Below, piece after piece: positions 10,069 to 24,174 of a DNA stretch of 24,189 bases (the first letter of the stretch is position 1; each line of letters starts with the position of its first letter). The DNA lies in the IMG/VR virus record IMGVR_UViG_3300025401_001154, positions 1 to 24,189 of that record. One strand, given 5' to 3'. Made by a program: the position numbers and the translations under genes. The DNA comes from a virus. The notes beneath the pieces were generated by a model that was given only the letters and a program-made list of their open reading frames with translations, was not told the DNA's origin and did no database searches.

Positions 10069-10091
10069 CTCTACTAACGAGGTAAATACCA

Positions 10092-10670: not shown

Positions 10671-10671
10671 C

Positions 10672-11148: not shown

Positions 11149-11149
11149 C

Positions 11150-11235: not shown

Positions 11236-11241
11236 ATTAAA

Positions 11242-11415: not shown

Positions 11416-11416
11416 T

Positions 11417-11444: not shown

Positions 11445-11460
11445 GCGATATAAAATGGAT

Positions 11461-11541
11461 GAAAACGATCTGCACCGCTCGGGCTAGTCAGAATGTTTCT
11501 CGTTTTCCCTTTCACGATACTCGTGAAACGTTTTCCATAGT
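11461..11541. ncRNA. structured spacer with two helices
   Basis: GAAAACG (11461-11467) pairs with CGTTTTC (11501-11507), and TTTCACG-ATACT-CGTGAAA (11510-11528) is a perfect 7-bp hairpin followed on plus by CGTTTTCC. I see no gene in 11445-11603; the frame there is only an open stretch without an SD. The hairpin could terminate plus-strand RNA weakly. Confidence 0.35.
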
Positions 11542-11603
11542 AAAATAGCTGGATACACGTTTTTATAGAGACCGTCCCCATCCTGTGCCACAACTAACAA
11601 CCT

Positions 11604-11791
11604 GATAAGAGTTGCCTTGCGCGACATGAATCGTCTACTCTGTTCTCAAGCTAATCACACTTGAGCAAAACTTGGTACGGATGAAGGGACTCGAACCCCC
11701 ACGATGTGAATCGCCAGGACCTAAACCTGGTGCGTCTACCAATTCCGCCACATCCGCATGTTAAATATATTTACTCGCCGCAACTCTTATC
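11604..11791 (-). ncRNA. 12-bp inverted repeat enclosing tRNA-Leu(TAG)
   Basis: GATAAGAGTTGC (11604-11615) is the exact inverse of GCAACTCTTATC (11780-11791). In the RNA the helix would enclose the whole tRNA-Leu(TAG) plus a hairpin CTCAAG-N9-CTTGAG (11645-11665). It may be a processing structure of the precursor. Confidence 0.5.
11673..11757 (-). tRNA. tRNA-Leu(TAG)
   Basis: CCA encoded, acceptor GCGGATG/CATCCGT, anticodon arm CCAGG-TTTAGGT-CCTGG, type II variable arm, T-arm GGGGG-TTCGAGT-CCCTT. Its 5' 26 nt equal those of tRNA-Leu(TAA) at 4947-5095, so they are paralogues. Confidence 0.95.
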
Positions 11792-11808
11792 TCAAATAAA
11801 GTTGCTGA

Positions 11809-11871
11809 TCCTTGACACAAGGACTGCTACAGCCTTCGGGTACATAGGAGAGAATTGAGAATGTCCCCTAT
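11809..11871. ncRNA. hairpin pair in tRNA spacer
   Basis: TCCTTG-ACA-CAAGGA (11809-11823), and ATAGGAGA (11844-11851) with TCCCCTAT (11864-11871), 8 bp with one G-U in RNA. There is no coding potential between tRNA-Leu(TAG) and tRNA-Phe. Function unknown. Confidence 0.35.
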
Positions 11872-11905
11872 CACATACGGCATACTGTACACACACGAAT
11901 AGTTC

Positions 11906-11981
<76 letters not shown>

Positions 11982-11986
11982 GTTAA

Positions 11987-12095
11987 ACTTATTAGAAGAA
12001 CACACTTACTACTCTCCATGTATCAGGGTAGCTATTTCCCTAACCCACTTCATTGAGCCAGCGTCCTGTTTTTTAAATGTGTTCATCTAATAAGT
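11987..12095 (-). ncRNA. structured RNA, UUCUUC-helix family member 3
   Basis: ACTTATTAGA-a-GAACACA (11987-12004) pairs with TGTGTTC-a-TCTAATAAGT (12078-12095): 17 bp with one mismatch. Inside AGGG/CCCT. Paralogue of 6924-7016 (identical 19-mer at the 3' arm). No tRNA arms or ORF. Confidence 0.6.
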
Positions 12096-12098
12096 CTA

Positions 12099-12338
12099 TC
12101 ATATAGATAAACTTTTCAGAAATGCAAATACTTCTTCTTCGGAATGATAGATGGCATGATGAGATACCGGACGAGTTAACGCCACCTGATAATTATCACC
12201 AAACTTTCTTATTATTCCAAAACCCTCAAATCTACCATGACCCGGAGAACGATTGTTCCAGCGAGTACGATAACCATAAGGAAAAGATTTACATTCATAT
12301 GTTGCACCGAGTATTTCGGCACATTTTTCATAGAACAT
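12099..12338 (-). CDS. small hypothetical phage protein, 79 aa
   Basis: MFYEKCAEILGATYECKSFP... from ATG 12338; the upstream AAAGAAAGAAAGATA is a weak purine-rich SD. Residues 20-50 are rich in Arg/Gly/aromatics, the end is helical (SEEEVFAFLKSLSI). It lies between tRNA-Glu copy 2 and the structured RNA at 11987. No family recognised. Confidence 0.6.
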   Translation of the reverse strand: MFYEKCAEILGATYECKSFPYGYRTRWNNRSPGHGRFEGFGIIRKFGDNYQVALTRPVSHHAIYHSEEEVFAFLKSLSI

Positions 12339-12423
12339 TATCTTTCTTTCTTTAAACGGAGAGTTTCACCAGTCACTATTCCATAAAACGAATAATTACA
12401 GCCCACTCACAATGCTCTAACCT

Positions 12424-12501
12424 TGGTGACGCATGAGGGAGTCGAACCCTCTTTATGTCGGAGTGAAGTTCCGCTGACCCAACCACTTAGCCGTATGCGC
12501 C
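12424..12501 (-). tRNA. tRNA-Glu(TTC), copy 2, with C33
   Basis: CCA encoded, acceptor GGCGCAT/ATGCGTC, T-arm GAGGG-TTCGACT-CCCTC, D-arm nearly identical to Glu copy 1. Anticodon arm GCGGA-ACTTCAC-TCCGA: UUC preceded by C33 instead of the near-universal U33, and a G-A at the stem base. It may be impaired or altered. Confidence 0.75.
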
Positions 12502-12512
12502 ATTTAAACAAT

Positions 12513-12580
12513 CTTGGGAACGGTTTCAGCATAACCTGTATTCCGCCCAAGCAGTCAGTTGGCGCTCTTAGGACCAATGA
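12513..12580. ncRNA. hairpins in tRNA spacer
   Basis: CTTGGG (12513-12518) with CCCAAG (12546-12551), containing GGTT/AACC; then GTCA-g-TTGG with CCAATGAC (12553-12580). First of three structured elements in the 400-nt spacer 12502-12905, which holds no protein gene I can support. Confidence 0.35.
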
Positions 12581-12596
12581 CCAATTCTTAAACTAC

Positions 12597-12708
12597 TTTG
12601 AAGAACACTGTGGAATCGTCATTCCCTAATATTATTGGATTCGAACCAATCGCTCGCCATCACAGGCAGGAAGTCACCGATGCTTCTCAATATTCAGTAT
12701 TCATCAAA
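12597..12708 (-). ncRNA. structured RNA, UUCUUC-helix family member 4, with tRNA-like core
   Basis: TTTGA-a-GAA-c-ACTG (12597-12610) pairs with CAGT-a-TTC-a-TCAAA (12695-12708). The core on the minus strand has T-arm ATTGG-TTCGAAT-CCAAT, acceptor AATATT/AATATT, D-arm GAAG-CATCGGTGA-CTTC and a TGCC/GGCG arm with a 6-nt loop, plus a 3' hairpin GGAAT/ATTCC. No CCA. Confidence 0.55.
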
Positions 12709-12719
12709 ACAGTCTTATA

Positions 12720-12808
12720 TTTCAAGGGAGTCCTTTGAATACGGCCCATATCTCCGTACCGTAAGGTCCTAGCTCACAAAGTCTAGAGTCGCAGGAACTC
12801 CCTTGAAA
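12720..12808. ncRNA. 89-nt structured element with 15-bp closing helix
   Basis: TTTCAAGGGAGT (12720-12731) is the exact inverse of ACTCCCTTGAAA (12797-12808). CCT/AGG continues the helix past one bulged A. Inside ACGG-N9-CCGT and CTAG/CTAG. No coding potential. Orientation unknown. Confidence 0.55.
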
Positions 12809-12819
12809 CAATTTCTAAT

Positions 12820-12897
12820 CAACAATGTCAAAGAATAGAGAGTCTCTTTCGTCGCTCTCTATGAACCCACAATAGCGTGATGATTGGGGTATGTCAA
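12820..12897 (-). promoter_or_regulatory. sigma-70 promoter with conserved downstream hairpin
   Basis: TTGACA (12892-12897), 17 nt, TATTGT (12869-12874). Downstream RNA has ATAGAGAG/CTCTCTAT (8 bp) and then CTTTGACATTGTTG, the same 14-mer as at 5608-5683. It points into the structured elements at 12597-12808 and tRNA-Glu copy 2. Confidence 0.55.
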
Positions 12898-12910
12898 GCA
12901 CTATTTTTTA

Positions 12911-13351
12911 TTATTTTACAATTTTTACTTGATATCCAAGCAATGCTTCAATTTCTGCAATGGTAAGTTCTTGGACAGCGGTGGTTCTGCGTTTATGGTC
13001 TGCTTGTGTCACATGGACATCATTCAGATACCAGAACTTGGAGCCATCTGCCCGTTCAATAGCAGGTCCATCTTCGCGATGGAGTTTGTTATTCAGCCAC
13101 CATTCCTTGGTACCATCTGCACGTTCAATAGCAGGTCCATCTTCGCGATGGAGCTTGTCATTCAGATACCACCACTTGGAACCATCTGCATATTCAATGG
13201 CAGGTCCATCCTCGCGATGGAGATTGTCATTTAGATACCACCACTTGGAACCATCTGAGTATTCAGCAGCAGGTCCATCTTCGCGATGGAGTTTGTTCTT
13301 CAGATACCATTCACAACCACCTGCCCAAACGTTAACGGTATATTCAATCAT
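12911..13351 (-). CDS. LHREDGPA-repeat protein
   Basis: Preferred start ATG 13351 (MIEYTVNVWAGGCEWYLKNK) with AAGGAACATGAA upstream; the frame extends further 5' without an SD. About 146 aa with five ~23-residue repeats of the form LHREDGPAIE-ADGSK-WYLN-K, a beta-hairpin repeat related in style to MORN repeats and seen in phage and giant-virus proteins. The tail after the repeats is helical (ELTIAEIEALLGY). The repeats suggest a binding surface; function unknown. The sigma-70 promoter at 13392-13420 is its likely driver. Confidence 0.75.
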   Translation of the reverse strand: MIEYTVNVWAGGCEWYLKNKLHREDGPAAEYSDGSKWWYLNDNLHREDGPAIEYADGSKWWYLNDKLHREDGPAIERADGTKEWWLNNKLHREDGPAIERADGSKFWYLNDVHVTQADHKRRTTAVQELTIAEIEALLGYQVKIVK

Positions 13352-13391
13352 TTCATGTTCCTTTTTGGGAATGTTGCTCTCTATGAAAAGT

Positions 13392-13420
13392 GTTCTACCT
13401 ACCATATACGATAATGTCAA
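13392..13420 (-). promoter_or_regulatory. sigma-70 promoter for the repeat protein
   Basis: TTGACA (13415-13420), 17 nt, TAGAAC (13392-13397), about 35 nt before the ATG at 13351. Confidence 0.5.
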
Positions 13421-13430
13421 GCATAAAATT

Positions 13431-13808
13431 TCAGTTTAGTAAATTTTCTTTTCTGCAATATACACTTTCACTGTAATATCCATTTGACTCACCAAGGAAC
13501 CGAATATCCACATACCCCTTAAAAGTTGCGAATTTGTAAAAGGTCCAAGTATAACTTTCAGCACTACACGTGCCGGGGTCATCAAAATTGCTTTCTTCGT
13601 GGGATATCAATAACGGAAGCCCTTCAAGGTCTTCAATGTCACCAATAATTTCTTCAACACGAACGTCTTCGCAACAGTCCTGATCATGATAAAGTGTATA
13701 TCGCACTGTTTCGTTTTCAAAAATTACTTCGGTTCCAGTAGAATATACATTTTTAAATAAATGTCCAACCATTTCGGAAACATTCACGTGTGTATCATTC
13801 CATCCCAT
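13431..13808 (-). CDS. conserved phage protein, DUF7448-like, 125 aa
   Basis: Start ATG 13808 with AAAGGAAAAGTT upstream. The frame continues 31 codons further into the tRNA gene at 13829, which is not coding. The core YHDQDCCEDVRVEEIIGDIE, then DLEGLPLLISHEES and TWTFYKFATFKGYVDIRFLG and SNGYYSESV, matches a small family common in phages (I believe DUF7448). The function is unknown; the paired Cys and acidic residues might bind metal. It lies 20 nt after the tRNA CCA. Confidence 0.65.
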   Translation of the reverse strand: MGWNDTHVNVSEMVGHLFKNVYSTGTEVIFENETVRYTLYHDQDCCEDVRVEEIIGDIEDLEGLPLLISHEESNFDDPGTCSAESYTWTFYKFATFKGYVDIRFLGESNGYYSESVYCRKENLLN

Positions 13809-13828
13809 AACTTTTCCTTTGTATAATG

Positions 13829-14014
13829 TGGTGAGGGCGACCAGATTCGAACTGGCAAAGGCTGTTACTAGAGCATTACCAATAGCCGACATCAGGTTCA
13901 AAGACTGCCGCGAGTCTACAAAAAATACCCCTAGTCACTTACGAACAGTCCCGGATTTTACTCCAATCGTTCCTTACTTTAACGACGCGTATACCTTATT
14001 TCCGCTACGCCCTC
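13829..14014 (-). tRNA. tRNA gene with a ~107-nt insertion in the anticodon loop
   Basis: CCA encoded; acceptor GAGGGCG/CGCCCTC perfect; D-arm GCG-N13-CGC with GG; T-arm GCCAG-TTCGAAT-CTGGT; 5-nt variable loop CCTTT. TCGTT (13981-13985) can pair with AACAG (13862-13866) with one C-A mismatch. The 114 nt between them contain TCGTT/AACGA, GGGACTG/CAGTCTT and GGCT/AGCC stems. If the loop is rebuilt from its 3' edge the anticodon would be CUA, reading UAG. This is weak and may be chance; identity is not assigned. Confidence 0.5.
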
Positions 14015-14021
14015 ATAAACT

Positions 14022-14098
14022 TGGTGGCCCCATCGGGACTCGAACCCGGTTCTCCAGCTTGAGAGACTAGTGTCCTAACCATGTCAGACGCTGGGGCC
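14022..14098 (-). tRNA. tRNA-Glu(CTC)
   Basis: CCA encoded, acceptor GGCCCCA/TGGGGCC, anticodon arm CTAGT-CTCTCAA-GCTGG with G-U pairs, T-arm CCGGG-TTCGAGT-CCCGA. Confidence 0.9.
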
Positions 14099-14106
14099 AT
14101 TAAACT

Positions 14107-14178
14107 TGGTGGAGATGATGAGAATTGAACTCACAAAGTCCGCACTGCCAGCGCAAACCCCGTCCCAACGGCATCCCC
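14107..14178 (-). tRNA. short tRNA, probably Ala(GGC), with reduced D-arm
   Basis: CCA encoded, acceptor GGGGATG/CATCTCC, T-arm GTGAG-TTCAATT-CTCAT. The anticodon arm TTGCG-CTGGCAG-TGCGG (three G-U pairs) gives GGC. Only 72 nt; no stable D-stem can be formed in CCGTTGGGACGGGG. Either degenerate or a minimal tRNA. Confidence 0.6.
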
Positions 14179-14186
14179 GATTATTA

Positions 14187-14276
14187 TGGCGGAAACGGTG
14201 AGATTTGAACTCACGATACCTTTCGGTATGCTACATTTCGAATGTAGTGTAATAAACCAGACTCTACCACGTTTCC
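14187..14276 (-). tRNA. tRNA-Ser(CGA)
   Basis: CCA encoded, acceptor GGAAACG/CGTTTCC, anticodon arm CTACA-TTCGAAA-TGTAG, variable arm TACC-GAAA-GGTA, T-arm GTGAG-TTCAAAT-CTCAC, G73. Same anticodon stem as Ser(GGA) at 15108. Confidence 0.95.
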
Positions 14277-14454
14277 ACAATTTCCATCACGATTTGTAAA
14301 TATTTGGTAGTTTGCTGATCGTATACAGGTTTGATCATCGTTTTTTCCATCTACCTAACGTGTTGGGTGAGTGGCCGCACCTCATATGCAGTCCTCTGTA
14401 TTTTCATCCTGTCCCTCCACTTTTAAACTCGCGAGGGGATTGACTCCCCTCTTC

Positions 14455-14487
14455 CTTTGATGAATTGATGTGCAATATTCATCAAAG
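14455..14487 (-). repeat. 11-bp hairpin with the TTTGATGAA motif
   Basis: CTTTGATGAAT (14455-14465) pairs perfectly with ATTCATCAAAG (14477-14487). The 5' arm equals the 5' arm consensus of the UUCUUC-helix family but here fully paired. Upstream GAGGGG-N7-CCCCTC (14433-14451) is a second hairpin. No gene is seen in 14277-14501. Confidence 0.45.
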
Positions 14488-14501
14488 AGTATTAGTAAAA
14501 T

Positions 14502-14640
14502 TGGTGGCAGGACAACTCCTCAACCTCAATTAGACATATACAGACTCGCGAAGTCCTTCAGTACGAATGAAGTATCATTAGAACTACCTTTAAAATAAAG
14601 GGTTTAGACAATGTTAACTAGTATAGTCCAAATTCCTGCC
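14502..14640 (-). ncRNA. 139-nt RNA with tRNA acceptor stem and encoded ACCA end
   Basis: GGCAGGA/TCCTGCC is a perfect 7-bp acceptor followed by A and CCA, exactly as in the neighbouring tRNAs. The interior is not a cloverleaf: GGAC-N16-GTCT, ACC(c)TTT-N5-AAAGGT, CTTCA/TGAAG and GACT/AGTC. No TTCGA-type T-loop. Either a tRNA gene filled with foreign sequence or a novel tRNA-ended RNA. It lacks the tag frame and T-arm expected of tmRNA. Confidence 0.5.
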
Positions 14641-14694
14641 GTTTTTGGTGAAGCTATTATCATTTATTATACATTTGATCTTAATTACAAGAAT

Positions 14695-14787
14695 TTAAAA
14701 ATGATGGTCTCTGTCATAATGCATTTCGCTTAGAACAAATGGTGTTAGCATTGCCACACAAATTATTAAGCCCGTGAGAATATACAT
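14695..14787 (-). CDS. 30-aa membrane peptide
   Basis: ATG at 14785-14787, stop TAA at 14695-14697. AAAGGAG lies 6 nt before the ATG, and a TATAAATA late promoter at 14810-14817. The peptide MYILTGLIICVAMLTPFVLS followed by a short charged tail (EMHYDRDHHF) is one transmembrane helix. Candidate roles are lysis timing or superinfection exclusion; unknown. Confidence 0.55.
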   Translation of the reverse strand: MYILTGLIICVAMLTPFVLSEMHYDRDHHF

Positions 14788-14809
14788 AATAATCTCCTTT
14801 ATATTACAT

Positions 14810-14817
14810 TATTTATA
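14810..14817 (-). promoter_or_regulatory. late promoter TATAAATA
   Basis: Exact octamer on the minus strand, 23 nt before the 30-aa gene. AATAAT can pair with ATTATT on the other side of the SD, so the masking design may be used here too. Confidence 0.55.
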
Positions 14818-14866
14818 CAAAAATATCACATTTTAACAAAAGTGTAACAATTGTAATTAGCAATAA

Positions 14867-14944
14867 TGGTCTAGGTGAAGAGACTTGAACTCCCATGATG
14901 CCCTCGCCCCAAACGAGGTGGCTTACCAATTAGCCCACACCTAG
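14867..14944 (-). tRNA. tRNA-Pro(TGG), copy 2
   Basis: CCA encoded, acceptor CTAGGTG/CACCTAG, anticodon arm CCTCG-TTTGGGG-CGAGG, T-arm TGGGA-GTTCAAG-TCTC with D-arm GGGCTAATTGGTAAGCC. Confidence 0.9.
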
Positions 14945-14953
14945 ATAAAAAAT

Positions 14954-15102
14954 ATGCAGTTTAGGTGGATGGGACTCGAACCCATAAATGCCAGAGATAG
15001 TCACATACTCTGAAAAATCCGGTTTCAGGGTATCAGTGACAATTTCCCTTTAGCCAGATGTGTATACCTTTCCACCACCGGTATCTTTCGTCTAAACTGC
15101 AT
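14954..15102 (-). ncRNA. tRNA-like RNA enclosed in an 11-bp helix
   Basis: ATGCAGTTTAG (14954-14964) is the exact inverse of CTAAACTGCAT (15092-15102). Inside on the minus strand: GGTGG/CCACC as short acceptor, T-arm ATGGG-TTCGAGT-CCCAT, D-like GTG-N10-CAC, and a long hairpin of GTCAC/GTGAC stacked on ATACTCTGAAA/TTTCAGGGTAT. No CCA. Same design as 4681-4831. Confidence 0.55.
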
Positions 15103-15107
15103 AATTC

Positions 15108-15198
15108 TGGCGGAGTCGGTGGGATTCGAACCCACGGTACCCTGTTAGGGTACGCTACATTTCCAATGTAGTACCATCGGCCTCTCGGTCACGACTCC
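15108..15198 (-). tRNA. tRNA-Ser(GGA)
   Basis: CCA encoded, acceptor GGAGTCG/CGACTCC, anticodon arm CTACA-TTGGAAA-TGTAG, variable arm GTACCCT/AGGGTAC, T-arm GTGGG-TTCGAAT-CCCAC, G73. Confidence 0.95.
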
Positions 15199-15202
15199 GT
15201 TA

Positions 15203-15447
15203 TATGGCGGCTCCATTTGTTTTTCTCCGTTGTTCCTGATTATGGAAGTCAGAACCAGCATGATGGAGCCATAAGATTGGAGCCAGGAGGAGCCGTATGT
15301 TCGTCGCAGCATACGCGATGGCCCGTACCCGGCATAATAATATCTATGTCACATTGCGACGAAAACATAGATTTCAAAATGAAGCAGCGGCAACGATTCA
15401 TTCGTCACTATTTGGTGCACCAAATATTGGTGTCACTCGCCGCCATA
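15203..15447. ncRNA. 245-nt structured RNA closed by TATGGCGGC/GCCGCCATA
   Basis: TATGGCGGC (15203-15211) is the exact inverse of GCCGCCATA (15439-15447). Inside: GGCTCCAT/ATGGAGCC (15209-15270, competing with the closing helix by 3 nt), CGTATG/CATACG, ATCTATGT/ACATAGAT, GCGGC/GCCGC and the 18-nt palindrome TATTTGGTGCACCAAATA. Frames in this stretch lack an SD and cut across the helices, so I do not call a gene. It lies between tRNA-Ser(GGA) and tRNA-Val(GAC). Confidence 0.6.
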
Positions 15448-15450
15448 GAC

Positions 15451-15525
15451 TGGTGCATCCTGATGGTTTCGAACCAACGACCTTCTGCGTGTCGAGCAGA
15501 TGCGCTACCACTGCGCTAAGGATGC
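15451..15525 (-). tRNA. tRNA-Val(GAC) with C33
   Basis: CCA encoded, acceptor GCATCCT/AGGATGC, anticodon arm TCTGC-TCGACAC-GCAGA, T-arm GTTGG-TTCGAAA-CCATC. Position 33 is C, not U. It shares the arm TCTGC/GCAGA with Val(TAC). Confidence 0.85.
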
Positions 15526-15526
15526 G

Positions 15527-15748
15527 TTAGGCGCGCAAACGAAAAATAAATTTGATGATAAATCCGATGACGATACATGTAACACCTGTCACCAAAATGG
15601 CAAGTGGAATCTGATTGTGGGTTGCGAGAAAATGAACCCACAATCCCAAACCACCAAGTGCACCTGCAACTAAGATGGAGACACCAAGAATGATCAGGGC
15701 TATGCCAAGCATTCTGCCATACGGATTAATAAGATTAAAGTCTATCAT
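15527..15748 (-). CDS. small membrane protein with two TM helices, 73 aa
   Basis: Preferred start ATG 15748 (MIDFNLINPYGRM); an earlier in-frame ATG at 15763 overlaps the promoter. Two hydrophobic helices: MLGIALIILGVSILVAGALG and PLAILVTGVTCIVIGFIIKF, joined by a short loop (WVHFLATHNQI). GATAAATA lies directly before, with only GTTTC between it and ATG and no SD, so the late mRNA should be leaderless. Function unknown; it ends one base before tRNA-Val. Confidence 0.65.
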   Translation of the reverse strand: MIDFNLINPYGRMLGIALIILGVSILVAGALGGLGLWVHFLATHNQIPLAILVTGVTCIVIGFIIKFIFRLRA

Positions 15749-15753
15749 GAAAC

Positions 15754-15761
15754 TATTTATC
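15754..15761 (-). promoter_or_regulatory. late promoter GATAAATA abutting the ATG
   Basis: With T4 spacing (octamer at about -13 to -6) transcription would begin at or next to the A of ATG 15748. Confidence 0.55.
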
Positions 15762-15778
15762 ATTTAACGCACTGAATT

Positions 15779-15852
15779 TGGCGTACCCTGTAGGAGTCGA
15801 ACCCACGCTAACTGGGTTGGAACCAGTCGTGCTACCGTAACACTTAGAATAC
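15779..15852 (-). tRNA. tRNA-Trp(CCA), copy 2
   Basis: CCA encoded, acceptor GTATTCT/AGGGTAC, anticodon arm ACTGG-TTCCAAC-CCAGT, T-arm GTGGG-TTCGACT-CCTAC, G73. Diverged from copy 1 mainly in the stems, with compensating pairs, so both look functional. Confidence 0.92.
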
Positions 15853-15859
15853 ATTAAAC

Positions 15860-15950
15860 TGGCTGACTTAGCAGGACTCGAACCTGCATACCCCTTTCGG
15901 GGAATACACGGCGTTAACAGCGCCGCCTCTTACCATTAGAGTATAAGCCA
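15860..15950 (-). tRNA. tRNA-Asn(GTT) with expanded variable arm
   Basis: CCA encoded, acceptor TGGCTTA/TAAGTCA, D-arm CTCTAATGGTAAGAG, anticodon arm CGGCG-CTGTTAA-CGCCG, T-arm GCAGG-TTCGAGT-CCTGC, G73. The variable region is about 21 nt with CCCC-GAAA-GGGG, a feature of Ser/Leu/Tyr tRNAs. G73 plus a long arm resembles SerRS identity, so the charged amino acid is uncertain. Confidence 0.8.
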
Positions 15951-15955
15951 ATGAT

Positions 15956-16091
15956 ATATCAGATGTCCTTTCGGCAAAAGTCCTAGCCTCCATCTATCTT
16001 TTCACGTTTTTCAACGCACTGGCTATTCGAGGACTACTCCTTAGATGATGCATGTTATCCTAGATGCGGATTATAGCAACATTTCCGATAT
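15956..16091. ncRNA. structured spacer element
   Basis: ATATC-ag-ATGT (15956-15966) pairs with ACAT-ttcc-GATAT (16079-16091); inside AGTCCT/AGGACT. No coding potential. Weaker than the other closed elements. Confidence 0.35.
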
Positions 16092-16098
16092 TTTAAAC

Positions 16099-16199
16099 TG
16101 GTGTGAGAGGATGGATTCGAACCATCAGGCATCCGGATTTCAAACCTGCCTCGCACCGTGCGCTACGAACTGTCATTACGCGTTAGACAGTCACCTCAC
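16099..16199 (-). tRNA. tRNA-like gene with an extra hairpin; anticodon unclear
   Basis: CCA encoded, acceptor GTGAGG/CTCTCAC (last pair lost), T-arm GATGG-TTCGAAT-CCATC. Directly after the acceptor is ACTGTC-N11-GACAGT, then CGCA-CGG-TGCG, then GGCA-GG-N8-CC-gga-TGCC. The last loop TTTGAAAT could read UGA (Ser) or GAA (Phe). The 6-bp hairpin at the position 8-9 junction looks like an insertion. Confidence 0.45.
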
Positions 16200-16206
16200 A
16201 TAAAAC

Positions 16207-16273
16207 TGGGGTGATTGACGGGTATCGAGCCCGCAACTCCGGATTCACAATCCAGCATGTATCCATTAACACC
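16207..16273 (-). tRNA. tRNA-His(GTG) lacking a D-arm
   Basis: Anticodon arm CTGGA-TTGTGAA-TCCGG, T-arm GCGGG-CTCGATA-CCCGT, C73 and CCA with a G at -1, the His identity signature. Only about 10 nt lie between the acceptor strand and the anticodon arm, so no D-arm can form, and the acceptor has mismatches. Probably a decayed or minimal His tRNA. Confidence 0.65.
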
Positions 16274-16290
16274 TCAACCACCATAAAATC

Positions 16291-16367
16291 TGGTGGACCC
16301 GCTCGGACTTGAACCGAGAACTTACCGCTTAAAAGGCGGTTACTCTGACCTATTGAGTTACGGGTCC
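16291..16367 (-). tRNA. tRNA-Lys(TTT)
   Basis: CCA encoded, acceptor GGACCCG/CGGGTCC, anticodon arm ACCGC-CTTTTAA-GCGGT, T-arm CTCGG-TTCAAGT-CCGAG. Confidence 0.95.
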
Positions 16368-16464
16368 GTAAAACTCTCAATATCGGCTGCAGACTGAACT
16401 TAATCAGTCATTCTTTGGCGAGGGTTTGTTAGCCCTTCTTTAAACGTATACTACGTACCGTTTA

Positions 16465-16887
16465 TCAAATGTCAAGATGTTTTTTGGCATTCTCAATATA
16501 ATCTTTAATGCGCTTGCTACCGATAGGATTCATAGAGTGAACCGTATATTCCGGAAACTTGATGCCATTGTCTGCACAATAGTCAACAAGCCACTTAGCG
16601 CAATCATATCCGGTCTTTTCCCGACCATAGTCATAATCAGACACTTGTGCAGCAACTCCAAACAGCAACTGACCAGTGCTATTTTGTTGGCAATCCCTTA
16701 GCATATGCTGATAGTGAGCATCGGCAAGGTCATGGTCAAACGTTACAAAAACTGGAACACCATGTTGACTGATGTGGTTTACAAACTGATCGTAATTACG
16801 AACAACTTCATAGATAGCACTTGGAAGTGCAACCCATGTTACTTGTCCGGGAGAACGTTCGTCGTCAAGAAAAAGATGGTAACTCAT
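16465..16887 (-). CDS. cyclic-phosphate-processing receiver-like (cREC) protein
   Basis: 140 aa starting MSYHLFLDDERSPGQVTWVA. The LFLDDER motif, then VFVTFDHDLAD (about residues 45-56), then KTGYDCAKWLVDYC and the closing VHSMNPIGSKRIKDYI are the marks of a small receiver-like family annotated as cyclic-phosphate processing receiver domain proteins. The acidic pocket (DDE, D of FDHD) is intact. A role in phage handling of cyclic or terminal phosphates is inferred from the family name only. The sigma-70 -10 box ends 7 nt before the ATG, so the mRNA is near leaderless. Confidence 0.65.
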   Translation of the reverse strand: MSYHLFLDDERSPGQVTWVALPSAIYEVVRNYDQFVNHISQHGVPVFVTFDHDLADAHYQHMLRDCQQNSTGQLLFGVAAQVSDYDYGREKTGYDCAKWLVDYCADNGIKFPEYTVHSMNPIGSKRIKDYIENAKKHLDI

Positions 16888-16894
16888 GTCGTGT

Positions 16895-16922
16895 ACCCTA
16901 TCAGATGGTGAAACAATGTCAA
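16895..16922 (-). promoter_or_regulatory. sigma-70 promoter immediately before ATG
   Basis: TTGACA (16917-16922), 16 nt, TAGGGT (16895-16900). The predicted start site falls 1-2 nt before ATG 16887. AGGG in the -10 could act as SD only for longer read-through RNA. Confidence 0.5.
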
Positions 16923-16931
16923 GTGTTGAAA

Positions 16932-17008
16932 TGGTGCAACCAATAGGCTTCGAACCTATAACCTTCGGTTTCGTAGACCGATGCTCTATCCAGTTGAGCT
17001 ATGGCTGC
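16932..17008 (-). tRNA. tRNA-Arg(ACG)
   Basis: CCA encoded, acceptor GCAGCCA/TGGTTGC, anticodon arm TCGGT-CTACGAA-ACCGA, T-arm ATAGG-TTCGAAG-CCTAT. A34 must be converted to inosine by host TadA to read CGU/CGC/CGA. Confidence 0.94.
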
Positions 17009-17024
17009 GTTATGCGTTTGATCA

Positions 17025-17309
17025 TTAATATGAAGGTCTATAATATTCTTCACCTTCATATATTGTAATTCTATTTTTTCGTAATGCATTTTCTAGTTGT
17101 GCATGGTACCTATATCGCTGAATATTTCCCTTACCAAGATCAGCAACATATAAACCGTTAGACGATTTAAATACTTGAGCAACATTAAATCCAGTTCTGG
17201 ACGAAAATACAGCAACTATATCTTCATCAACTGACCAATCTGGAAGTTTATGTCCAAATATCATACTGTCATCATCTTTGTTCAAATTTTCAACTTCATC
17301 AATTCTCAT
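17025..17309 (-). CDS. small hypothetical phage protein, 94 aa
   Basis: MRIDEVENLNKDDDSMIFGH... from ATG 17309 with AGGGAAATGAC upstream and ATTAAATA (17333-17340) as a possible weak late promoter. Mixed alpha/beta, acidic N-terminus, basic QRYRYHAQLENALRKNR segment near the C-terminus. No family recognised. Confidence 0.65.
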   Translation of the reverse strand: MRIDEVENLNKDDDSMIFGHKLPDWSVDEDIVAVFSSRTGFNVAQVFKSSNGLYVADLGKGNIQRYRYHAQLENALRKNRITIYEGEEYYRPSY

Positions 17310-17355
17310 GTCATTTCCCTATGGATATCATGTATTTAATGAAATTTAGTAAATT

Positions 17356-17432
17356 TGGTAGTCCCTGAGGGATTCGAACCCCCGACATCCTGTTTCGAAG
17401 ACAGGCGCTCTAATCCACTGAACTAAGGGACT
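17356..17432 (-). tRNA. tRNA-Arg(TCG)
   Basis: CCA encoded, acceptor AGTCCCT/AGGGACT, anticodon arm CCTGT-CTTCGAA-ACAGG, T-arm CGGGG-TTCGAAT-CCCTC. Confidence 0.94.
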
Positions 17433-17440
17433 ATTAAAGG

Positions 17441-17516
17441 TGGTGCTGTATGACGGAATCGAACCGCCGACATCCTGATTACTAAACAGGTACTCTACCA
17501 TCTGAGTTAATACAGC
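17441..17516 (-). tRNA. tRNA-Thr(AGT)
   Basis: CCA encoded, acceptor GCTGTAT/ATACAGC, anticodon arm CCTGT-TTAGTAA-TCAGG (T-T at the loop base), T-arm GGCGG-TTCGATT-CCGTC. AGU is rare in bacterial Thr tRNAs and would need A34-to-I editing or restricted decoding. Confidence 0.85.
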
Positions 17517-17533
17517 ATTAATTAATAATAACT

Positions 17534-17607
17534 TGGATGCCCCTCAGAGACTCGAACTCCGATTGACGGATTCAAAGTCCGCTCTCTTACCATTAGAGGA
17601 AGGGGCA
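17534..17607 (-). tRNA. tRNA-Gln(TTG)
   Basis: CCA encoded, acceptor TGCCCCT/AGGGGCA, anticodon arm GCGGA-CTTTGAA-TCCGT, T-arm CGGAG-TTCGAGT-CTCTG. First tRNA of the array in the direction of transcription. Confidence 0.94.
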
Positions 17608-19212: not shown

Positions 19213-20274
19213 TTAGAATGCCAGTTGACTGTAATCAAAGTTCATTTTTGCCTTGACGCGAGTAAGAACAACTCGGGTTCCCTGATCCTCAAAGGTAAAA
19301 TTACCTTCCTTTGCATCAAGACTGATCAGGTTGTTTGGTTCAAACCGAATGGACAGATAATCAGAATCATCATTTTCAGGATCAGGATCAAATTCAACAT
19401 GAAATCCCTGTGGACGGAGAGGATTGCCATCAAATTTACGAGGATGAGCCTGAGCAATTTCCTTGCCGTTATGCATGACCTTCATTTCATATTCAGTACC
19501 ACCATCAAACTCAGGTTTTGCATTAAGCATTTCAAGGGCTTCGCTCGGAGTTTCATTGTAGCGGTTCATTTCTTCAACAAGCGCCTTAAGCATATCAAAA
19601 TTGAATTGTCCGAACAGACTTGCGATAGAAACAATCTGCTCAATATACTGCTTGTTGTTGAGGTTGTCTTCACAAAATTCACGAATGAATCCTGCATCCA
19701 GTCCCTTGAAATCAAGCATATAGAAGATACGTCCCGGACGGTTGCGCATATGAGTGTCAACCTTCCACTTGTCGTTCACAGTAAGGATATACAGCTTCTT
19801 AGAAGCAAACACCCCATCAAGGAGAGTAAGAATCTGTTCTTGGTCATCGCGATCATAAACCTTTTCAAACTCATCAAAAAGGATGATGCATGGTTGATCA
19901 ATGTCCTGCAGCAACTTGAAGAACGCATCGCCCTTCCAATCACGGTTGATGACAATAGTAGGCACACCTTGCTTGGCAAGTTGATTGGCTACATTCTTTG
20001 CAAGCATAGTCTTGCCAGAACCCTTTTCGCCGTTAAGCATCACGCCAGTCTGAGCAGGACGGGAGAAAAACGTATTGATGATGCGATCAGTGTGACGAAG
20101 GGTGTCACCATACATCTTCTTTGGAAGTTCAAAATCTTCAATCTGCTCAAGATAGAAATTTCCATGCATATCTTGCGCTACGGTGTAATTTGCGGGTGGA
20201 AGCAGTTCATGCAAATCCATAGCCTCCTTGCTGGAGACTCGGAAAGACTTGCCGGATTTCAAAAAATATGCCAT
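19213..20274 (-). CDS. AAA+ ATPase
   Basis: 353 aa. Walker A GEKGSGKT (about residues 83-90), Walker B CIILFDEFEKV (about 130-140), sensor 1 in LTVNDKW, and an arginine-finger-like RNRPGRIFY. An N-terminal ~60-residue domain and a C-terminal domain rich in Asp (EFDPDPENDDSDYLSIRFEP) flank the module. The layout resembles BCS1/VPS4-like single-module ATPases found in large phages, with unknown substrate. ATG 20274 follows AAGGGAAACATACTACA. Head of the run is shared with the PTH2-like gene upstream. Confidence 0.85.
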   Translation of the reverse strand: MAYFLKSGKSFRVSSKEAMDLHELLPPANYTVAQDMHGNFYLEQIEDFELPKKMYGDTLRHTDRIINTFFSRPAQTGVMLNGEKGSGKTMLAKNVANQLAKQGVPTIVINRDWKGDAFFKLLQDIDQPCIILFDEFEKVYDRDDQEQILTLLDGVFASKKLYILTVNDKWKVDTHMRNRPGRIFYMLDFKGLDAGFIREFCEDNLNNKQYIEQIVSIASLFGQFNFDMLKALVEEMNRYNETPSEALEMLNAKPEFDGGTEYEMKVMHNGKEIAQAHPRKFDGNPLRPQGFHVEFDPDPENDDSDYLSIRFEPNNLISLDAKEGNFTFEDQGTRVVLTRVKAKMNFDYSQLAF

Positions 20275-20299: not shown

Positions 20300-20632
20300 T
20301 TAGAACTTAAGTAGATTGAAGGCGAGAAGGATATCCTTTTTGTCTTCGTCAATGGGATAAACTGCAATTGCAGTCATCTCACTATTACCAATATCTGGTT
20401 CATAAAAAACTTCAAAATTGAAGTTAAATTTATACAAGATTTTTTCAACTGCAAGCAGTGCATCAAGATTGCGAACACCAACACATACAAAGTACGTGTC
20501 ATCTGGGTCTGAATACTTTGAAGTATCTCTCCCACACTTATCTCCCAATTTGAACGCGATATGCGCGGTCTGCACAAGCTGTTGTTCGGGGCGAATATCT
20601 TGGCGGGTAAAGGTGTAAAGATATCTTTTCAT
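20300..20632 (-). CDS. PTH2-like (peptidyl-tRNA hydrolase fold) phage protein
   Basis: 110 aa. MKRYLYTFTRQDIRPEQQLV, then QTAHIAFKLG, resembles the R-Q-D-L...K-x-A-Q-x-x-H-A start of PTH2 enzymes. YFVCVGVRNLDALLAVEKIL and FYEPDIGNSEMTAIAVYPI fit the later strands (D-A-G-x-T-x-I...T-V-L-A-I-G-P). The catalytic Lys/Asp set is not fully conserved, so it may be a derived fold rather than an active hydrolase. A role in rescuing peptidyl-tRNA would suit a phage with this tRNA load. ATG overlaps the preceding TGA (ATGA). Confidence 0.5.
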   Translation of the reverse strand: MKRYLYTFTRQDIRPEQQLVQTAHIAFKLGDKCGRDTSKYSDPDDTYFVCVGVRNLDALLAVEKILYKFNFNFEVFYEPDIGNSEMTAIAVYPIDEDKKDILLAFNLLKF

Positions 20633-20925
20633 GTTGATGTTTCTTTCGGAAAAGGAGGATAAATGTACTTGGGTTTGTGATTCAGGCGGGCAAGTTTCAT
20701 TTTATCTTTCTCAATTAAACTTTCAACCAGGCGGGCAAGTTTCATTTTATCTTTCTCAATTAAACTTTCAACCTTTTTCGTGGCCTCGCTGTAAGTATAT
20801 TCAGGTTCAGTATCCCAATCTTTAAGATTGTCGAAAATACTTTTCCATACAAACACGCCCTTTTGTTCAATAGTATAGAGTCCATTCGCCTGTTCAACCA
20901 AACGATAATTGGTCAGTTTTTTCAT
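20629..20925 (-). CDS. small hypothetical protein with internal 15-residue duplication, 98 aa
   Basis: MKKLTNYRLVEQANGLYTIE... begins inside the stop of the upstream gene (ATGA) and ends in the start of the next. VESLIEKDKMKLARL occurs twice in tandem (about residues 53-82), encoded by a perfect 45-bp direct repeat. The duplicated part is a charged helix. Function unknown. Confidence 0.7.
   Translation of the reverse strand: MKKLTNYRLVEQANGLYTIEQKGVFVWKSIFDNLKDWDTEPEYTYSEATKKVESLIEKDKMKLARLVESLIEKDKMKLARLNHKPKYIYPPFPKETST
20683..20772. repeat. perfect 45-bp tandem duplication
   Basis: Copies at 20683-20727 and 20728-20772 are identical, in frame (15 codons) with no drift, so the duplication is recent or an assembly artefact. 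Confidence 0.9.
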
Positions 20926-21152
20926 AGTAGGGCTTTGCCTTTTTCAGTGAGCGTAATGGTACAAGTGACATCACTACCGATATCAATATATCCCTGCCGC
21001 CATGCTTCTTCAATAAGACCCCTATCCTGATAGACCTGTTCCCAAGCATGTAACGGAATATGGCTGTTGCTACCGTTGCGAACAAACTCACGAACATATC
21101 CCTCAGGAGTGAGGTCAAGTTCGTCTTCAAAAAGATACAGTTGTTGTGTCAT
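20922..21152 (-). CDS. small hypothetical phage protein, 76 aa
   Basis: MTQQLYLFEDELDLTPEGYV... Lead gene of the run down to 18257. Acidic N-terminus, then a winged-helix-like WEQVYQDRGLIEEAWRQGYI. No SD precedes ATG 21152; the sigma-70 -10 box ends 6 nt before it, so the message should be leaderless. Confidence 0.7.
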   Translation of the reverse strand: MTQQLYLFEDELDLTPEGYVREFVRNGSNSHIPLHAWEQVYQDRGLIEEAWRQGYIDIGSDVTCTITLTEKGKALL

Positions 21153-21158
21153 GAATTT

Positions 21159-21190
21159 CTTATATCAGGGGTTGACCATAATGTCAACCC
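21159..21190 (-). promoter_or_regulatory. strong sigma-70 promoter in a 9-bp inverted repeat
   Basis: TTGACA (21182-21187), 17 nt, TATAAG (21159-21164). The predicted +1 is the A of ATG 21152. GGGGTTGAC-N6-GTCAACCCC covers the -35 and could be an operator. Confidence 0.7.
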
Positions 21191-21206
21191 CCATTTTACT
21201 TACAAA

Positions 21207-21674
21207 TTAGAAACGAACACCGAGACCAGTTACTACATCATTGGACTTCACGCCACCAAAATCTTGATGACGGAATTCAACAGTTGTAAACACTGGACCG
21301 AGAACCTTGGTTTCCACACCGCCTGCAAAACGTGCACCATCAACATTTGTGAAATTGATATCACGATAATTTGCGTAATCAATCTTTGCGTAAGCAAGAG
21401 AAGAATTGGTTAGCTTTAGTCCAAGACGAGCGCCAACATTGATGTTGCGGCGATCAAATACATTATCTACACCAGTTTCAACTCCAACACGAAGTGGACC
21501 AAGAACCTTTACATCATATCCAACTTCTGCACCATATGTAAAGTTGGTCTGGTTTGCCGTTACATTCTGATATCCGGCGGTTGCTTCTACGCGAGGACCA
21601 GTAAAGTCACTTGCAATTGCAGGGGTAGAACTCATAGTCATTGCAGCAATTGCTGCCAAAATTACATTCTTCAT
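21207..21674 (-). CDS. outer-membrane beta-barrel protein, phage-encoded
   Basis: 155 aa. Signal peptide MKNVILAAIAAMTMSSTPAI with cleavage near AIA-SDF. The mature part alternates polar and apolar residues in about eight strands and ends GLGVRF, the aromatic C-terminus recognised by the BAM machinery. DFTGPRVEATAGYQ after the signal is characteristic of small porin-family proteins of sphingomonads and related alphaproteobacteria. It should insert in the host outer membrane; plausible roles are receptor masking, superinfection exclusion or altered permeability. Perfect -10 TATAAT, a leader hairpin and AAAGGAG indicate high expression. Probably taken from a host. Confidence 0.8.
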   Translation of the reverse strand: MKNVILAAIAAMTMSSTPAIASDFTGPRVEATAGYQNVTANQTNFTYGAEVGYDVKVLGPLRVGVETGVDNVFDRRNINVGARLGLKLTNSSLAYAKIDYANYRDINFTNVDGARFAGGVETKVLGPVFTTVEFRHQDFGGVKSNDVVTGLGVRF

Positions 21675-21700
21675 TATTTTTTCTCCTTTGGTTGCCTTTT

Positions 21701-21791
21701 GAATTCGGAAGGCTAACCTTTTCTACTCAAACCACTTGTTCTGAGTAGGAATTATAAAAACTATTATATCAGTAAATCATATAAATGTCAA
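21701..21791 (-). promoter_or_regulatory. consensus sigma-70 promoter and leader hairpin
   Basis: TTGACA (21786-21791), 17 nt, TATAAT (21763-21768), both perfect. The ~85-nt leader carries CTACTCA-N12-TGAGTAG, which may protect the mRNA 5' end. Confidence 0.85.
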
Positions 21792-21825
21792 TCTTAATTA
21801 CGGACTGATCTTTACTTGGATTTCG

Positions 21826-22041
21826 TCAAAATCGTTTAAACTTGAATGGGTCCCAACCATTCATGGAACAAGTTGTATAAGGCCAACGAATAGCCCCGAA
21901 GCTTGTATTACGCTTACCCCAATTATAACATTTTTGGCTGTTACTGAGGTCTCTGGGTTCGTTTTTGCACCTCAAGAGGGATTTTAATGGCCAATGCATA
22001 ATCTTTACGTGCTTCTCGAAGTCGTCATAACCTTTAAGCAT
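21826..22041 (-). CDS. small hypothetical phage protein, 71 aa
   Basis: MLKGYDDFEKHVKIMHWPLK... with AAGGAGAATATAGCG before ATG 22041. Basic, with several Trp and two Cys (CKNEPRDLSNSQKCYNWGK); no membrane segment. Transcribed from the promoter at 22128-22156. Unrecognised. Confidence 0.6.
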   Translation of the reverse strand: MLKGYDDFEKHVKIMHWPLKSLLRCKNEPRDLSNSQKCYNWGKRNTSFGAIRWPYTTCSMNGWDPFKFKRF

Positions 22042-22127
22042 CGCTATATTCTCCTTGTTGATTAAACAATCTTAGCATTTGCACGAACTTCGTCAAATGT
22101 GTATTCCTTGACGAGCTTGCCGTTTTC

Positions 22128-22156
22128 ATACTACACAAGATTGTCCGAACTGTCAA
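22128..22156 (-). promoter_or_regulatory. sigma-70 promoter
   Basis: TTGACA (22151-22156), 17 nt, TAGTAT (22128-22133), giving an ~80-nt leader to the gene at 21826-22041. Confidence 0.6.
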
Positions 22157-22166: not shown

Positions 22167-22242
22167 GATAAATAGTTGTGAGTCGCGGAACCCCCATCCC
22201 CACTCACTCTAATGCTACAAGGAGCAATCAGCATGACTATTT
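22167..22242 (+). promoter_or_regulatory. late promoter with pairing to the start region of the GIY-YIG gene
   Basis: GATAAATA (22167-22174). ATAAATAGT here is the exact inverse of ACTATTTAT that begins 2 nt after the A of ATG 22233; GTGAGT/ACTCAC pairs in between. RNA from upstream would mask the start, late RNA would not. Confidence 0.5.
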
Positions 22243-22880
22243 ATATATACAAGAAAACACATAATCAAACCGGTTTAATGTACTTAGGCAAAACAAATGC
22301 CGCTGATCCTCACAAATATAAAGGCTCTGGAAAAATCTGGATGGCACATATCAAAAAACATGGCTATGATGTTACAACCGAAATACTAAAAGAATGTAAA
22401 AATAACAACGAAGTCAAAAATTGGGGAATCTACTACAGCGAATTATGGAATATAGTAAATGCACGAGACGAGAATGGCAGAAAGATTTGGGCAAACCTTA
22501 AACAAGAAAATGGCGATGGTGGATGGGATCATGTGAATAACGATCCATCAAAATATGAACGTCCTGATTGCAGCGGAAAGAATAGCGGAATGTTTGGTAA
22601 ACAACATTCATCAGACTCTATAAAACTGATGAGTAAGAATAGATCAGGAAAGGGAACAGGAAAGCATTCTACCAGTCATATAGCAAACAGAAGAAAGAGT
22701 AGATGTAAAAAATATAAATTAATTTCCCCGACCGGCGTTGAATATTTAACAACTGATCTTAAAGAATTTTGTGAATTACATAATCTAATATATAAAACCA
22801 TATACAAACTCCCGAATCGCAAAAAGGGCAATATTGCGACTTCGGGAGCATGTTCTGGATGGCTCTGCGTTAAAGCTTAG
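22233..22880 (+). CDS. GIY-YIG homing endonuclease with NUMOD3 motif
   Basis: Start ATG 22233 with AAGGAG 8 nt upstream; an earlier in-frame ATG lacks an SD. The protein begins MTIYIYKKTHNQTGLMYLGK, the GIY-YIG core in its phage Seg-like form (Y-I-Y...Y-L-G-K). The middle has GKNSGMFGKQH, a NUMOD3 DNA-binding motif. The C-terminal KYKLISPTGVEYLTT...FCELHNLIYKTIYKL is an IENR1/NUMOD1-type helix-turn-helix. Its 3' end overlaps the stop of nadV by 11 nt, convergent. Mobile intergenic endonuclease. Confidence 0.9.
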   Translation: MTIYIYKKTHNQTGLMYLGKTNAADPHKYKGSGKIWMAHIKKHGYDVTTEILKECKNNNEVKNWGIYYSELWNIVNARDENGRKIWANLKQENGDGGWDHVNNDPSKYERPDCSGKNSGMFGKQHSSDSIKLMSKNRSGKGTGKHSTSHIANRRKSRCKKYKLISPTGVEYLTTDLKEFCELHNLIYKTIYKLPNRKKGNIATSGACSGWLCVKA

Positions 22881-24174
22881 CTCTCTTCCTGACTTCTTCA
22901 AAGGTGGTTTCATTAAACAATGAACCATTTTCAAAAACTACCTGCAAAACATCATCGGCATCGGGATACTTAGGATTCAAATTATTAATAGTTTCATAAC
23001 CATCAGTCGTCCTAACCAATTTCATCTTACCGACTTTAGATTTTTTGCCTGGGTCAGTGATCGGGTCTTTTTGAATAAAAACTTCGCGACCGTCAATCAA
23101 ACCATATGATGCCTTAAGGGCGAACTTCTGATCATCCCTGTTCACAATCTGGAGCAATGCACCGCCCTGACCAAACACCACGTTATCAGCACTGTAACCA
23201 GCCATGGTGATGGTGAAGATAATGCTGCGAATAGTCTGGTGGGTAATGCCATCACCTTGCAGAACGCGAACATTGTTTAGAACCTTATAGCCCTTGTCAT
23301 TGACAGTGTGTCCAAAGTGCTGATCAAGAATTCGCAGGCACTTGCAGACCACTTCTGCCGGATCACCGCTATCAGGACGTACCACAAGAGTAGCACCCGA
23401 ATCAAGCACATCCTGCTTGAGTTCCGTGCCCCACAGACGACATGCCTCATAGATGTCATAACTGTCCGAAACTGCCGAAACAATACCACCGGGCTTGCCG
23501 TTCTTCTTGACCATGTTGCGATACGAATCAACTTCGTTGTCGCGACCCCAACTAGTTACAGTACTGTGCTCCATCGCGGGCACTGAAAAACCAGCCATAC
23601 CTGCATCATAATACCGACGAGCAAAAAGCAGAGCCTCGACAGTGTCAGTACCCATGAAGTTGACCAGATGCGCTGCTCCGCCAATTCCAGCCGACTCCAG
23701 CGAGCTAACACCGCGAGCACCAAAATCGTGAAGCTTGAAGTCAATGCTAGCAGGGTCTCCAGTACGAATGAGAGCATCAAGAATTACCTTTTTAATTTCG
23801 CGGCTGTTAGTAGCCACAGTTGTAGGATACCAAATTGCACGAAGCAATGCGGTTTCGAGAAACGAAGTCAGCCAATAGCAGTTGGGATCAGTGTTCTCAA
23901 TCGTTGCGAGAACATTCTTGACAGGAACAACCGTGCCCTCGGGAACTGCCTTAATGCGAACAGGCAGATAGCCACCATGTTCACGCAGAATGTATTCCCA
24001 ACCTTCGCGATTGAATGGCTCACCGTGTGCAAGAATAATAGCTTCGGCTTCATCAATCATGTCTTGCGTGATTGGAGCACAAAGATATTCCTTGATAAAT
24101 GCCTGGAGTCCGAAGAACACGGTCTCATCATAGTGACCGCCGCGACTTTCAATGTAGCTATAGATGCCGGTCAC
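22870..24174 (-). CDS. nadV: nicotinamide phosphoribosyltransferase, 5'-truncated
   Basis: Converts nicotinamide and PRPP to NMN. Seen motifs: IYSYIESRGGHYDETVFFGL, FKLHDFGARGVSSLESAGIG (PRPP/nicotinamide pocket Asp), FSVPAMEHSTVTSWG with the catalytic His, VSDSYDIY, LVVRPDSGDP, LQGDGI and FGQGGALLQ, all as in NAMPT enzymes. About 434 residues are present; the usual first ~25 residues (ADSYK-x-x-HW-x-QYPPGT type) are missing because the window ends. The GTG at 24174 is only the first possible codon left. Phage nadV can rebuild host NAD+, which counters NAD-depleting defences when an NMN adenylyltransferase is also present; none is in this window. Confidence 0.9.
   Translation of the reverse strand: MTGIYSYIESRGGHYDETVFFGLQAFIKEYLCAPITQDMIDEAEAIILAHGEPFNREGWEYILREHGGYLPVRIKAVPEGTVVPVKNVLATIENTDPNCYWLTSFLETALLRAIWYPTTVATNSREIKKVILDALIRTGDPASIDFKLHDFGARGVSSLESAGIGGAAHLVNFMGTDTVEALLFARRYYDAGMAGFSVPAMEHSTVTSWGRDNEVDSYRNMVKKNGKPGGIVSAVSDSYDIYEACRLWGTELKQDVLDSGATLVVRPDSGDPAEVVCKCLRILDQHFGHTVNDKGYKVLNNVRVLQGDGITHQTIRSIIFTITMAGYSADNVVFGQGGALLQIVNRDDQKFALKASYGLIDGREVFIQKDPITDPGKKSKVGKMKLVRTTDGYETINNLNPKYPDADDVLQVVFENGSLFNETTFEEVRKRAKL

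What the first reader, a model, noticed from the sequence alone, without database searches (positions are those of the whole stretch)
21207..21674. Phage-borne outer-membrane barrel with host-like consensus promoter
A signal-peptided, F-terminated barrel with sphingomonad-type N-terminus under a perfect sigma-70 promoter suggests early, strong remodelling of the host outer membrane, and gives a host clue.
Basis: partly seen in the sequence, partly recalled or inferred. Interest (0 to 1): 0.6.

Follow-up and report, generated by a model that had tools for sequence, protein, structure and literature searches.

The report
Phage-encoded short-loop outer-membrane barrel
A large, probably sphingomonad-infecting phage carries a small host-derived outer-membrane barrel gene with very short surface loops, read from an ordinary phage promoter; it probably changes the surface of the infected cell, but what that achieves is untested.

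Summary
Window 21207-21674 (minus strand) encodes a 155-aa protein: signal peptide, predicted 8-strand barrel (pLDDT 81), final F, PF13505 above cut-off. A 12/12 sigma-70 promoter lies upstream. The gene sits in a genuine phage fragment (30 tRNAs, phage NAMPT, phage ATPase).

I found a phage-specific family: about ten distinct relatives (43-74% identity) on 23 viral contigs, one of 360 kb, in at least five gene neighbourhoods. dN/dS of about 0.15 shows selection keeps the gene. In the closest relative at this site (93.5% DNA identity) the segment is replaced, so the gene is accessory.

Two corrections. The perfect promoter is not special to this gene: related phages carry 193 distinct copies against 0-4 for control patterns.

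Best guess at function: remodelling of the infected cell's surface, most likely superinfection exclusion. This is inferred. Phage-encoded barrels are a known kind.

The parts
21207..21674 (-). CDS, 155-aa outer-membrane beta-barrel: signal peptide about 1-22, eight strands, C-terminal F
   Evidence: dN/dS about 0.15
21763..21791 (-). Promoter TTGACA-N17-TATAAT, 12/12, TG before -10
   Evidence: conserved in L092/L176
21675..21762 (-). 5' leader with two predicted hairpins (z -3.1)
   Evidence: not conserved in length or sequence in L176
21683..21687 (-). Ribosome-binding site AGGAG
   Evidence: sequence
21168..21191 (-). Inverted repeat GGGGTTGACATTATGGTCAACCCC just after the CDS; no T-run on the coding strand, so not a clear terminator
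   Evidence: L175 has a canonical terminator at this position
20509..22067 (.). Variable segment: no homology to the closest relative (L091/L017), whose flanks match at 93.5% and 74%
22870..24174 (-). Upstream conserved gene: nicotinamide phosphoribosyltransferase (NAMPT)
19213..20274 (-). Downstream conserved gene: phage AAA ATPase

Best explanation
It is an accessory (moron-like) phage gene for a short-loop, sphingomonad-type 8-strand outer-membrane barrel. Host RNA polymerase with sigma-70 would transcribe it early; the Sec signal peptide would export it and the C-terminal F motif would hand it to BAM, which inserts it in the outer membrane of the infected cell. There it most likely changes the surface in the phage's favour. 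The form I think most likely is superinfection exclusion: a nearly loop-free barrel that takes membrane or BAM capacity, or partners with a host barrel, and so lowers adsorption by other phages that bind host barrel loops. Shown by computation: the gene, fold class, promoter, family, selection, accessory status and short loops. Inferred: early timing, membrane insertion, and the exclusion function.
For: PF13505 over cut-off and a predicted 8-strand barrel. Promoter shared with L176 and of a type enriched 193 to 0-4 in related phages. Purifying selection. The site holds a different gene in a relative at 93.5% DNA identity, and most other relatives have no barrel there; family members sit beside NAMPT, gp25/gp6, nrdB, glycosyltransferases or a CHASE2 cyclase. 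All four extracellular loops are about 10 residues in all ten phage members against medians of 14/26/21/15 in ten Sphingomonadales proteins, with periplasmic turns equal. The extracellular half is slightly better conserved than the periplasmic half (3% of circular shifts do as well), the reverse of the cellular set. Precedent: phage T5 makes an outer-membrane exclusion protein, Llp, that alters its receptor (PMC9586334).
Against: No experiment, expression or proteome data. No receptor or partner is known, and the host is inferred. Llp is a periplasmic lipoprotein, so it is a functional precedent only. Short loops are not unique to phages: Croceicoccus L007 is equally short and Novosphingobium RL4, the best cellular match, is shorter than most, so the loops may have been short before the phage took the gene. 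The reduction is large only for loops 2 and 3. No clear terminator follows the gene in the window. The conservation difference between barrel halves is small.
Confidence: 0.4

Rival explanations
1. Envelope support: the small barrel stabilises the outer membrane, or supplies a minor pore, during a long infection by a large phage, with no effect on adsorption.
For: Small 8-strand barrels of the OmpA/OmpX type often have structural roles (general knowledge). Large phages carry many housekeeping-type genes; this window holds NAMPT and 30 tRNAs. Strands and turns are well conserved.
Against: The gene is absent from most close relatives at this site, so it is not needed by the group. There is no OmpA peptidoglycan-binding domain (155 aa in all).
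Confidence: 0.3
2. Lysis or outer-membrane disruption factor: accumulation of the barrel weakens the outer membrane and helps release.
For: In L175 the gene is followed at once by a strong intrinsic terminator, as could suit a dose-sensitive product.
Against: The promoter type is the general one of the group's NAMPT/ATPase region. No holin, endolysin or spanin was recognised beside the members examined.
Confidence: 0.1
3. Virion or tail protein.
For: In L177 the gene lies next to gp25 and gp6-like baseplate genes.
Against: It has a Sec-type signal peptide, an outer-membrane fold and cellular barrel relatives, and other members lie away from structural genes.
Confidence: 0.05
4. Host DNA wrongly placed in a phage contig.
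For: The closest annotated proteins are cellular.
Against: Four assemblies share the arrangement at 99.9-100%; the homologue follows phage NAMPT in L176 and another lies in a 360-kb phage contig; GC3 is 0.27 against 0.74-0.83 in the sphingomonad genes.
Confidence: 0.02

Closest known systems
PF13505 OMP_b-brl, Sphingomonadales 'outer membrane beta-barrel protein' (e.g. Novosphingobium sp. RL4, P6W)
   Same: Fold, signal peptide, F-x-GPR start of strand 1, G-R-G and terminal RF motifs; 29-35% identity
   Different: Most have longer extracellular loops, and their genes have high GC3
PF24653 Phage_OMP / phrog_417 (cyanophage barrels)
   Same: Phage-encoded outer-membrane-type barrel; weak profile match (E 5e-5, 23.9 bits)
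   Different: Below the curated cut-off of 27 bits; only 3 of 12 aligned members match at all
Phage barrels in BFVD (e.g. Synechococcus phage S-CBWM1 A0A3G1L3F6, Vibrio phage nt-1 R9TIU5, uncultured Caudovirales)
   Same: Similar predicted fold, phage-encoded, no function given
   Different: About 10-20% identity; S-CBWM1 and nt-1 show no PF13505 match at E 0.001
Agrobacterium phage Rivra gp27
   Same: Phage-encoded barrel that groups with a barrel of its host's genus
   Different: Separate origin, 220 aa, long loops
T5 Llp (superinfection exclusion)
   Same: Phage-made envelope protein that acts at the outer membrane (PMC9586334)
   Different: Llp is a periplasmic lipoprotein; the window protein is a barrel with no cysteine
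Loop-shortened minimal transmembrane barrel platform (PDB 2jmm)
   Same: Minimal 8-strand barrel, 22% identity in Foldseek
   Different: Man-made; here the short loops are natural

Membership tests
PF13505 OMP_b-brl | Profile score above curated cut-off over the full domain | tested here: met
   37.9 vs 28.7 bits, residues 8-155 to profile 2-175 of 175; all 12 aligned members match at E <= 0.01
PF13505 OMP_b-brl | 8-strand barrel with C-terminal aromatic | tested here: met
   Eight predicted strands, final F155
Outer-membrane protein | Sec signal peptide and actual outer-membrane location | not testable with these tools
   Signal peptide by inspection only; location needs fractionation
PF24653 Phage_OMP | Score above curated cut-off | tested here: not met
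   23.9 vs 27 bits
OmpA (PF01389 plus peptidoglycan-binding domain) | OmpA_membrane match and C-terminal OmpA domain | tested here: not met
   No PF01389 hit for the window protein at E <= 1; only 155 aa
Ail/Lom family (phage Lom) | Pfam Ail/Lom match | tested here: not met
   No such hit; Ail appears only as a fold neighbour at 10% identity
Superinfection-exclusion proteins | Expression reduces adsorption or infection by other phages | not testable with these tools
   Needs experiment
Llp/Cor-type exclusion lipoproteins | Lipobox cysteine | tested here: not met
   No cysteine in the protein
Phage moron | Accessory gene with its own promoter and terminator in a conserved gene order | tested here: inconclusive
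   Accessory and own promoter: met; terminator unclear in the window, canonical in L175, and in L176 a DUF3307 gene follows directly

The most novel reading that the evidence does not exclude
Large phages have evolved a 'bald' version of a sphingomonad outer-membrane barrel, all surface loops trimmed, as a mobile superinfection-exclusion gene that replaces or masks loop-bearing receptors. That would be an exclusion strategy distinct from receptor-plugging lipoproteins.
Probability: 0.18. Interest if true: 0.72.

Novelty: new member of a known kind. Interest (0 to 1): 0.45.

Why it matters
Phage-encoded outer-membrane barrels are common in sequence libraries, but in the papers I could search I found no tested function for them. 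This family gives a clean case: a single small gene with its own promoter, a traceable cellular source, and a consistent, testable feature (very short surface loops). It also offers a host hint for an otherwise unplaced group of large phages.

Tried and rejected
tblastn of the window protein and of L184's against named phages: no match. Two pattern scans of 84,980 bacterial and archaeal genomes: no close cellular relative; these scans only reach near relatives, so the plasmid search had to stand in for them. A profile scan with mixed phage and cellular proteins had no conserved stretch. A taxon-wide genome search centred on a plasmid locus was not accepted by the tool. Rfam on the L176 leader: only sub-threshold matches; that long leader is not significantly structured (z -1.2). 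PF13505 and PF24653 in five named T4-like or cyanophages: no match, and the PF24653 search had no positive control. PF24653 membership rejected (below cut-off). 'The promoter is special to this gene' rejected by the group-wide count. 'Recent transfer from a sphingomonad' rejected: GC3 0.27 against 0.74-0.83.

Full report
What is there. The minus strand of 21207-21674 encodes a 155-residue protein with an N-terminal signal-like segment, no cysteine, and a terminal RF. It matches PF13505 above the curated cut-off and PF24653 (cyanophage barrels) below it. Alignment-based AlphaFold gives eight strands at 26-38, 44-58, 61-72, 75-87, 92-104, 110-125, 128-138 and 143-154 (pLDDT 81.1, pTM 0.74). The nearest solved folds are NspA, OmpA, OmpX and Ail. 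The window is a 24-kb virus record with 30 tRNAs on one strand, a phage NAMPT and a phage AAA ATPase.

Is the gene real and phage-borne? Three other viral contigs carry it at 100% identity in the same arrangement. A homologue with 70% identity follows NAMPT in L092/L176. Between these two, DNA differences fall 38/24/78 on codon positions, with dN about 0.22 and dS about 1.42. A profile scan then found 24 viral contigs. About ten distinct proteins form the core family, with the motif DN[VI]FDR..[NG]...R.G. One lies in a 360-kb contig, about 96 kb from that phage's NAMPT. The 24th hit, L195, is more like a cellular barrel and lies outside the phage clade.

Accessory status. In most relatives that carry both genes, NAMPT is followed by a small gene (homologous to window 20300-20632, phrog_3668 'hydrolase') and the ATPase, with no barrel. 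The relative with the closest NAMPT after the near-identical contigs (L091/L017: 97% protein identity, 93.5% DNA identity over window 24171-22136) has no homology to window 22067-20509. It carries a 65-aa gene there instead (the same 65-aa gene is in L093). Elsewhere the barrel sits beside baseplate genes (L177), nrdB-like and SegE-like genes (L178, L184), glycosyltransferase-like genes (L182), or a CHASE2 cyclase (L180). So it occupies different sites in different phages. NrdB and glycosyltransferase labels are by sequence inspection.

The promoter. TTGACA-N17-TATAAT at 21791-21763 is perfect and unique in the window, against 0.033 expected. It is also perfect ahead of the L176 homologue, 318 nt before that start codon instead of 117. 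But across the viral loci held (about 2.7 Mb) there are 193 distinct 12/12 sites, against 0-4 for control patterns with altered spacing or scrambled hexamers. Of 192 counted with context, 189 lie on the strand of the query gene. So the promoter is functional by conservation, but it is the group's generic sigma-70 promoter. That it marks early genes is inferred from how large phages use host polymerase; it was not measured here.

Cellular source. Of 22 plasmid records hit by tblastn at E up to 1, 18 are Sphingomonadales. In a tree of 25 proteins, ten phage members form one clade (97/99). That clade lies with eight Sphingomonadales proteins and L195 (98/98), apart from an Agrobacterium protein (99/99). 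Rivra, an Agrobacterium phage, groups with the Agrobacterium protein: a single positive control that phage barrels can track the host. Cautions: the cellular set was chosen by similarity to the query, comes from plasmids only, and proteins of this length give weak deep branches. GC3 of 0.27 against 0.74-0.83 in the sphingomonad genes says the acquisition is not recent.

The loops. With the predicted strands as a frame, the four extracellular regions hold 9-11, 10, 10 and 10-11 residues in all ten phage members. In ten Sphingomonadales proteins the medians are 14, 26, 21 and 15. The three periplasmic turns are nearly the same in both sets (about 6, 8, 7). The difference is large for loops 2 and 3 and modest for 1 and 4. 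Croceicoccus L007 is as short throughout and does not lie in an evident prophage, and Novosphingobium RL4 (8/17/14/12), the best cellular match, is also short. So part of the trimming may predate capture by the phage. In the phage set the extracellular half is slightly better conserved than the periplasmic half (3.44 against 3.24 bits; 3% of circular shifts do as well), the reverse of the cellular set (2.47 against 2.72). This is a modest effect. Membrane orientation is assumed from the general rule that both ends of such barrels are periplasmic.

How it probably works. Shown: a selected, accessory, sigma-70-promoted phage gene for a minimal barrel related to Sphingomonadales proteins. Inferred: export, BAM insertion, early timing. 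For function I favour surface remodelling that lowers superinfection, because barrel loops are common phage receptors (established knowledge), this family has almost none, the gene is accessory, and envelope-acting exclusion proteins are known (T5 Llp, PMC9586334). Envelope support is nearly as plausible. I put 0.4 on the exclusion form and 0.9 on the structural identity.

Novelty. Phage-encoded barrels are already in Pfam, PHROGs and BFVD, so this is a new member of a known kind. The uniform short loops and the traceable origin are the new points; I did not test whether other phage barrel families share them (several BFVD neighbours of 139-157 residues might).

Noticed in passing
L180:7851-9908 (+), 360-kb phage contig IMGVR_UViG_3300032675_000001: A phage-encoded CHASE2 sensor plus class III nucleotide cyclase (PF05226 E 4e-38, PF00211 E 1e-21) directly upstream of the barrel gene. 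A membrane sensor cyclase on a phage looks unusual.
   Followed up: partly
L180:6647-7840 (+): A 397-aa signal-peptided protein with repeats resembling curlin (CsgA) repeats by eye, next to the cyclase; no Pfam match.
   Followed up: partly
viral loci: Perfect TTGACA-N17-TATAAT promoters are hugely enriched in this large-phage group (193 distinct against 0-4 for controls), nearly all on one strand.
   Followed up: yes
window 22062-22130 (-) and 22212-22880 (+): A homing-endonuclease-like ORF (weak HNH/NUMOD3 matches) sits at the NAMPT stop; a 22-codon remnant of what looks like the original NAMPT C-terminus (YENGKLVKEYTFDEVRANAKIV*) lies beyond it, as if the cassette replaced the gene's end.
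   Followed up: partly
window 20683-20773: A 45-bp tandem repeat inside ORF 20629-20925 (15 aa per unit) has one copy fewer in the otherwise near-identical L002.
   Followed up: no
window 1296-17607: 30 tRNA genes on one strand, interspersed with several HNH-type ORFs.
   Followed up: no
L092:11335-11622 / L176: The barrel homologue has a leader of about 280 nt with a UUCG-capped hairpin; no Rfam family, overall fold not significant.
   Followed up: partly
window 12911-13420 (-); L194:6588-6965 and 10180-10479: Repeats of the form LHREDGPAxEYADGSKxWYLN; in L194 two such genes lie on either side of the barrel gene.
   Followed up: no
L007:1444-1932 (Croceicoccus marinus plasmid pCME4A9I): A cellular barrel with loops as short as the phage family's, beside a TIR-domain gene.
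   Followed up: partly
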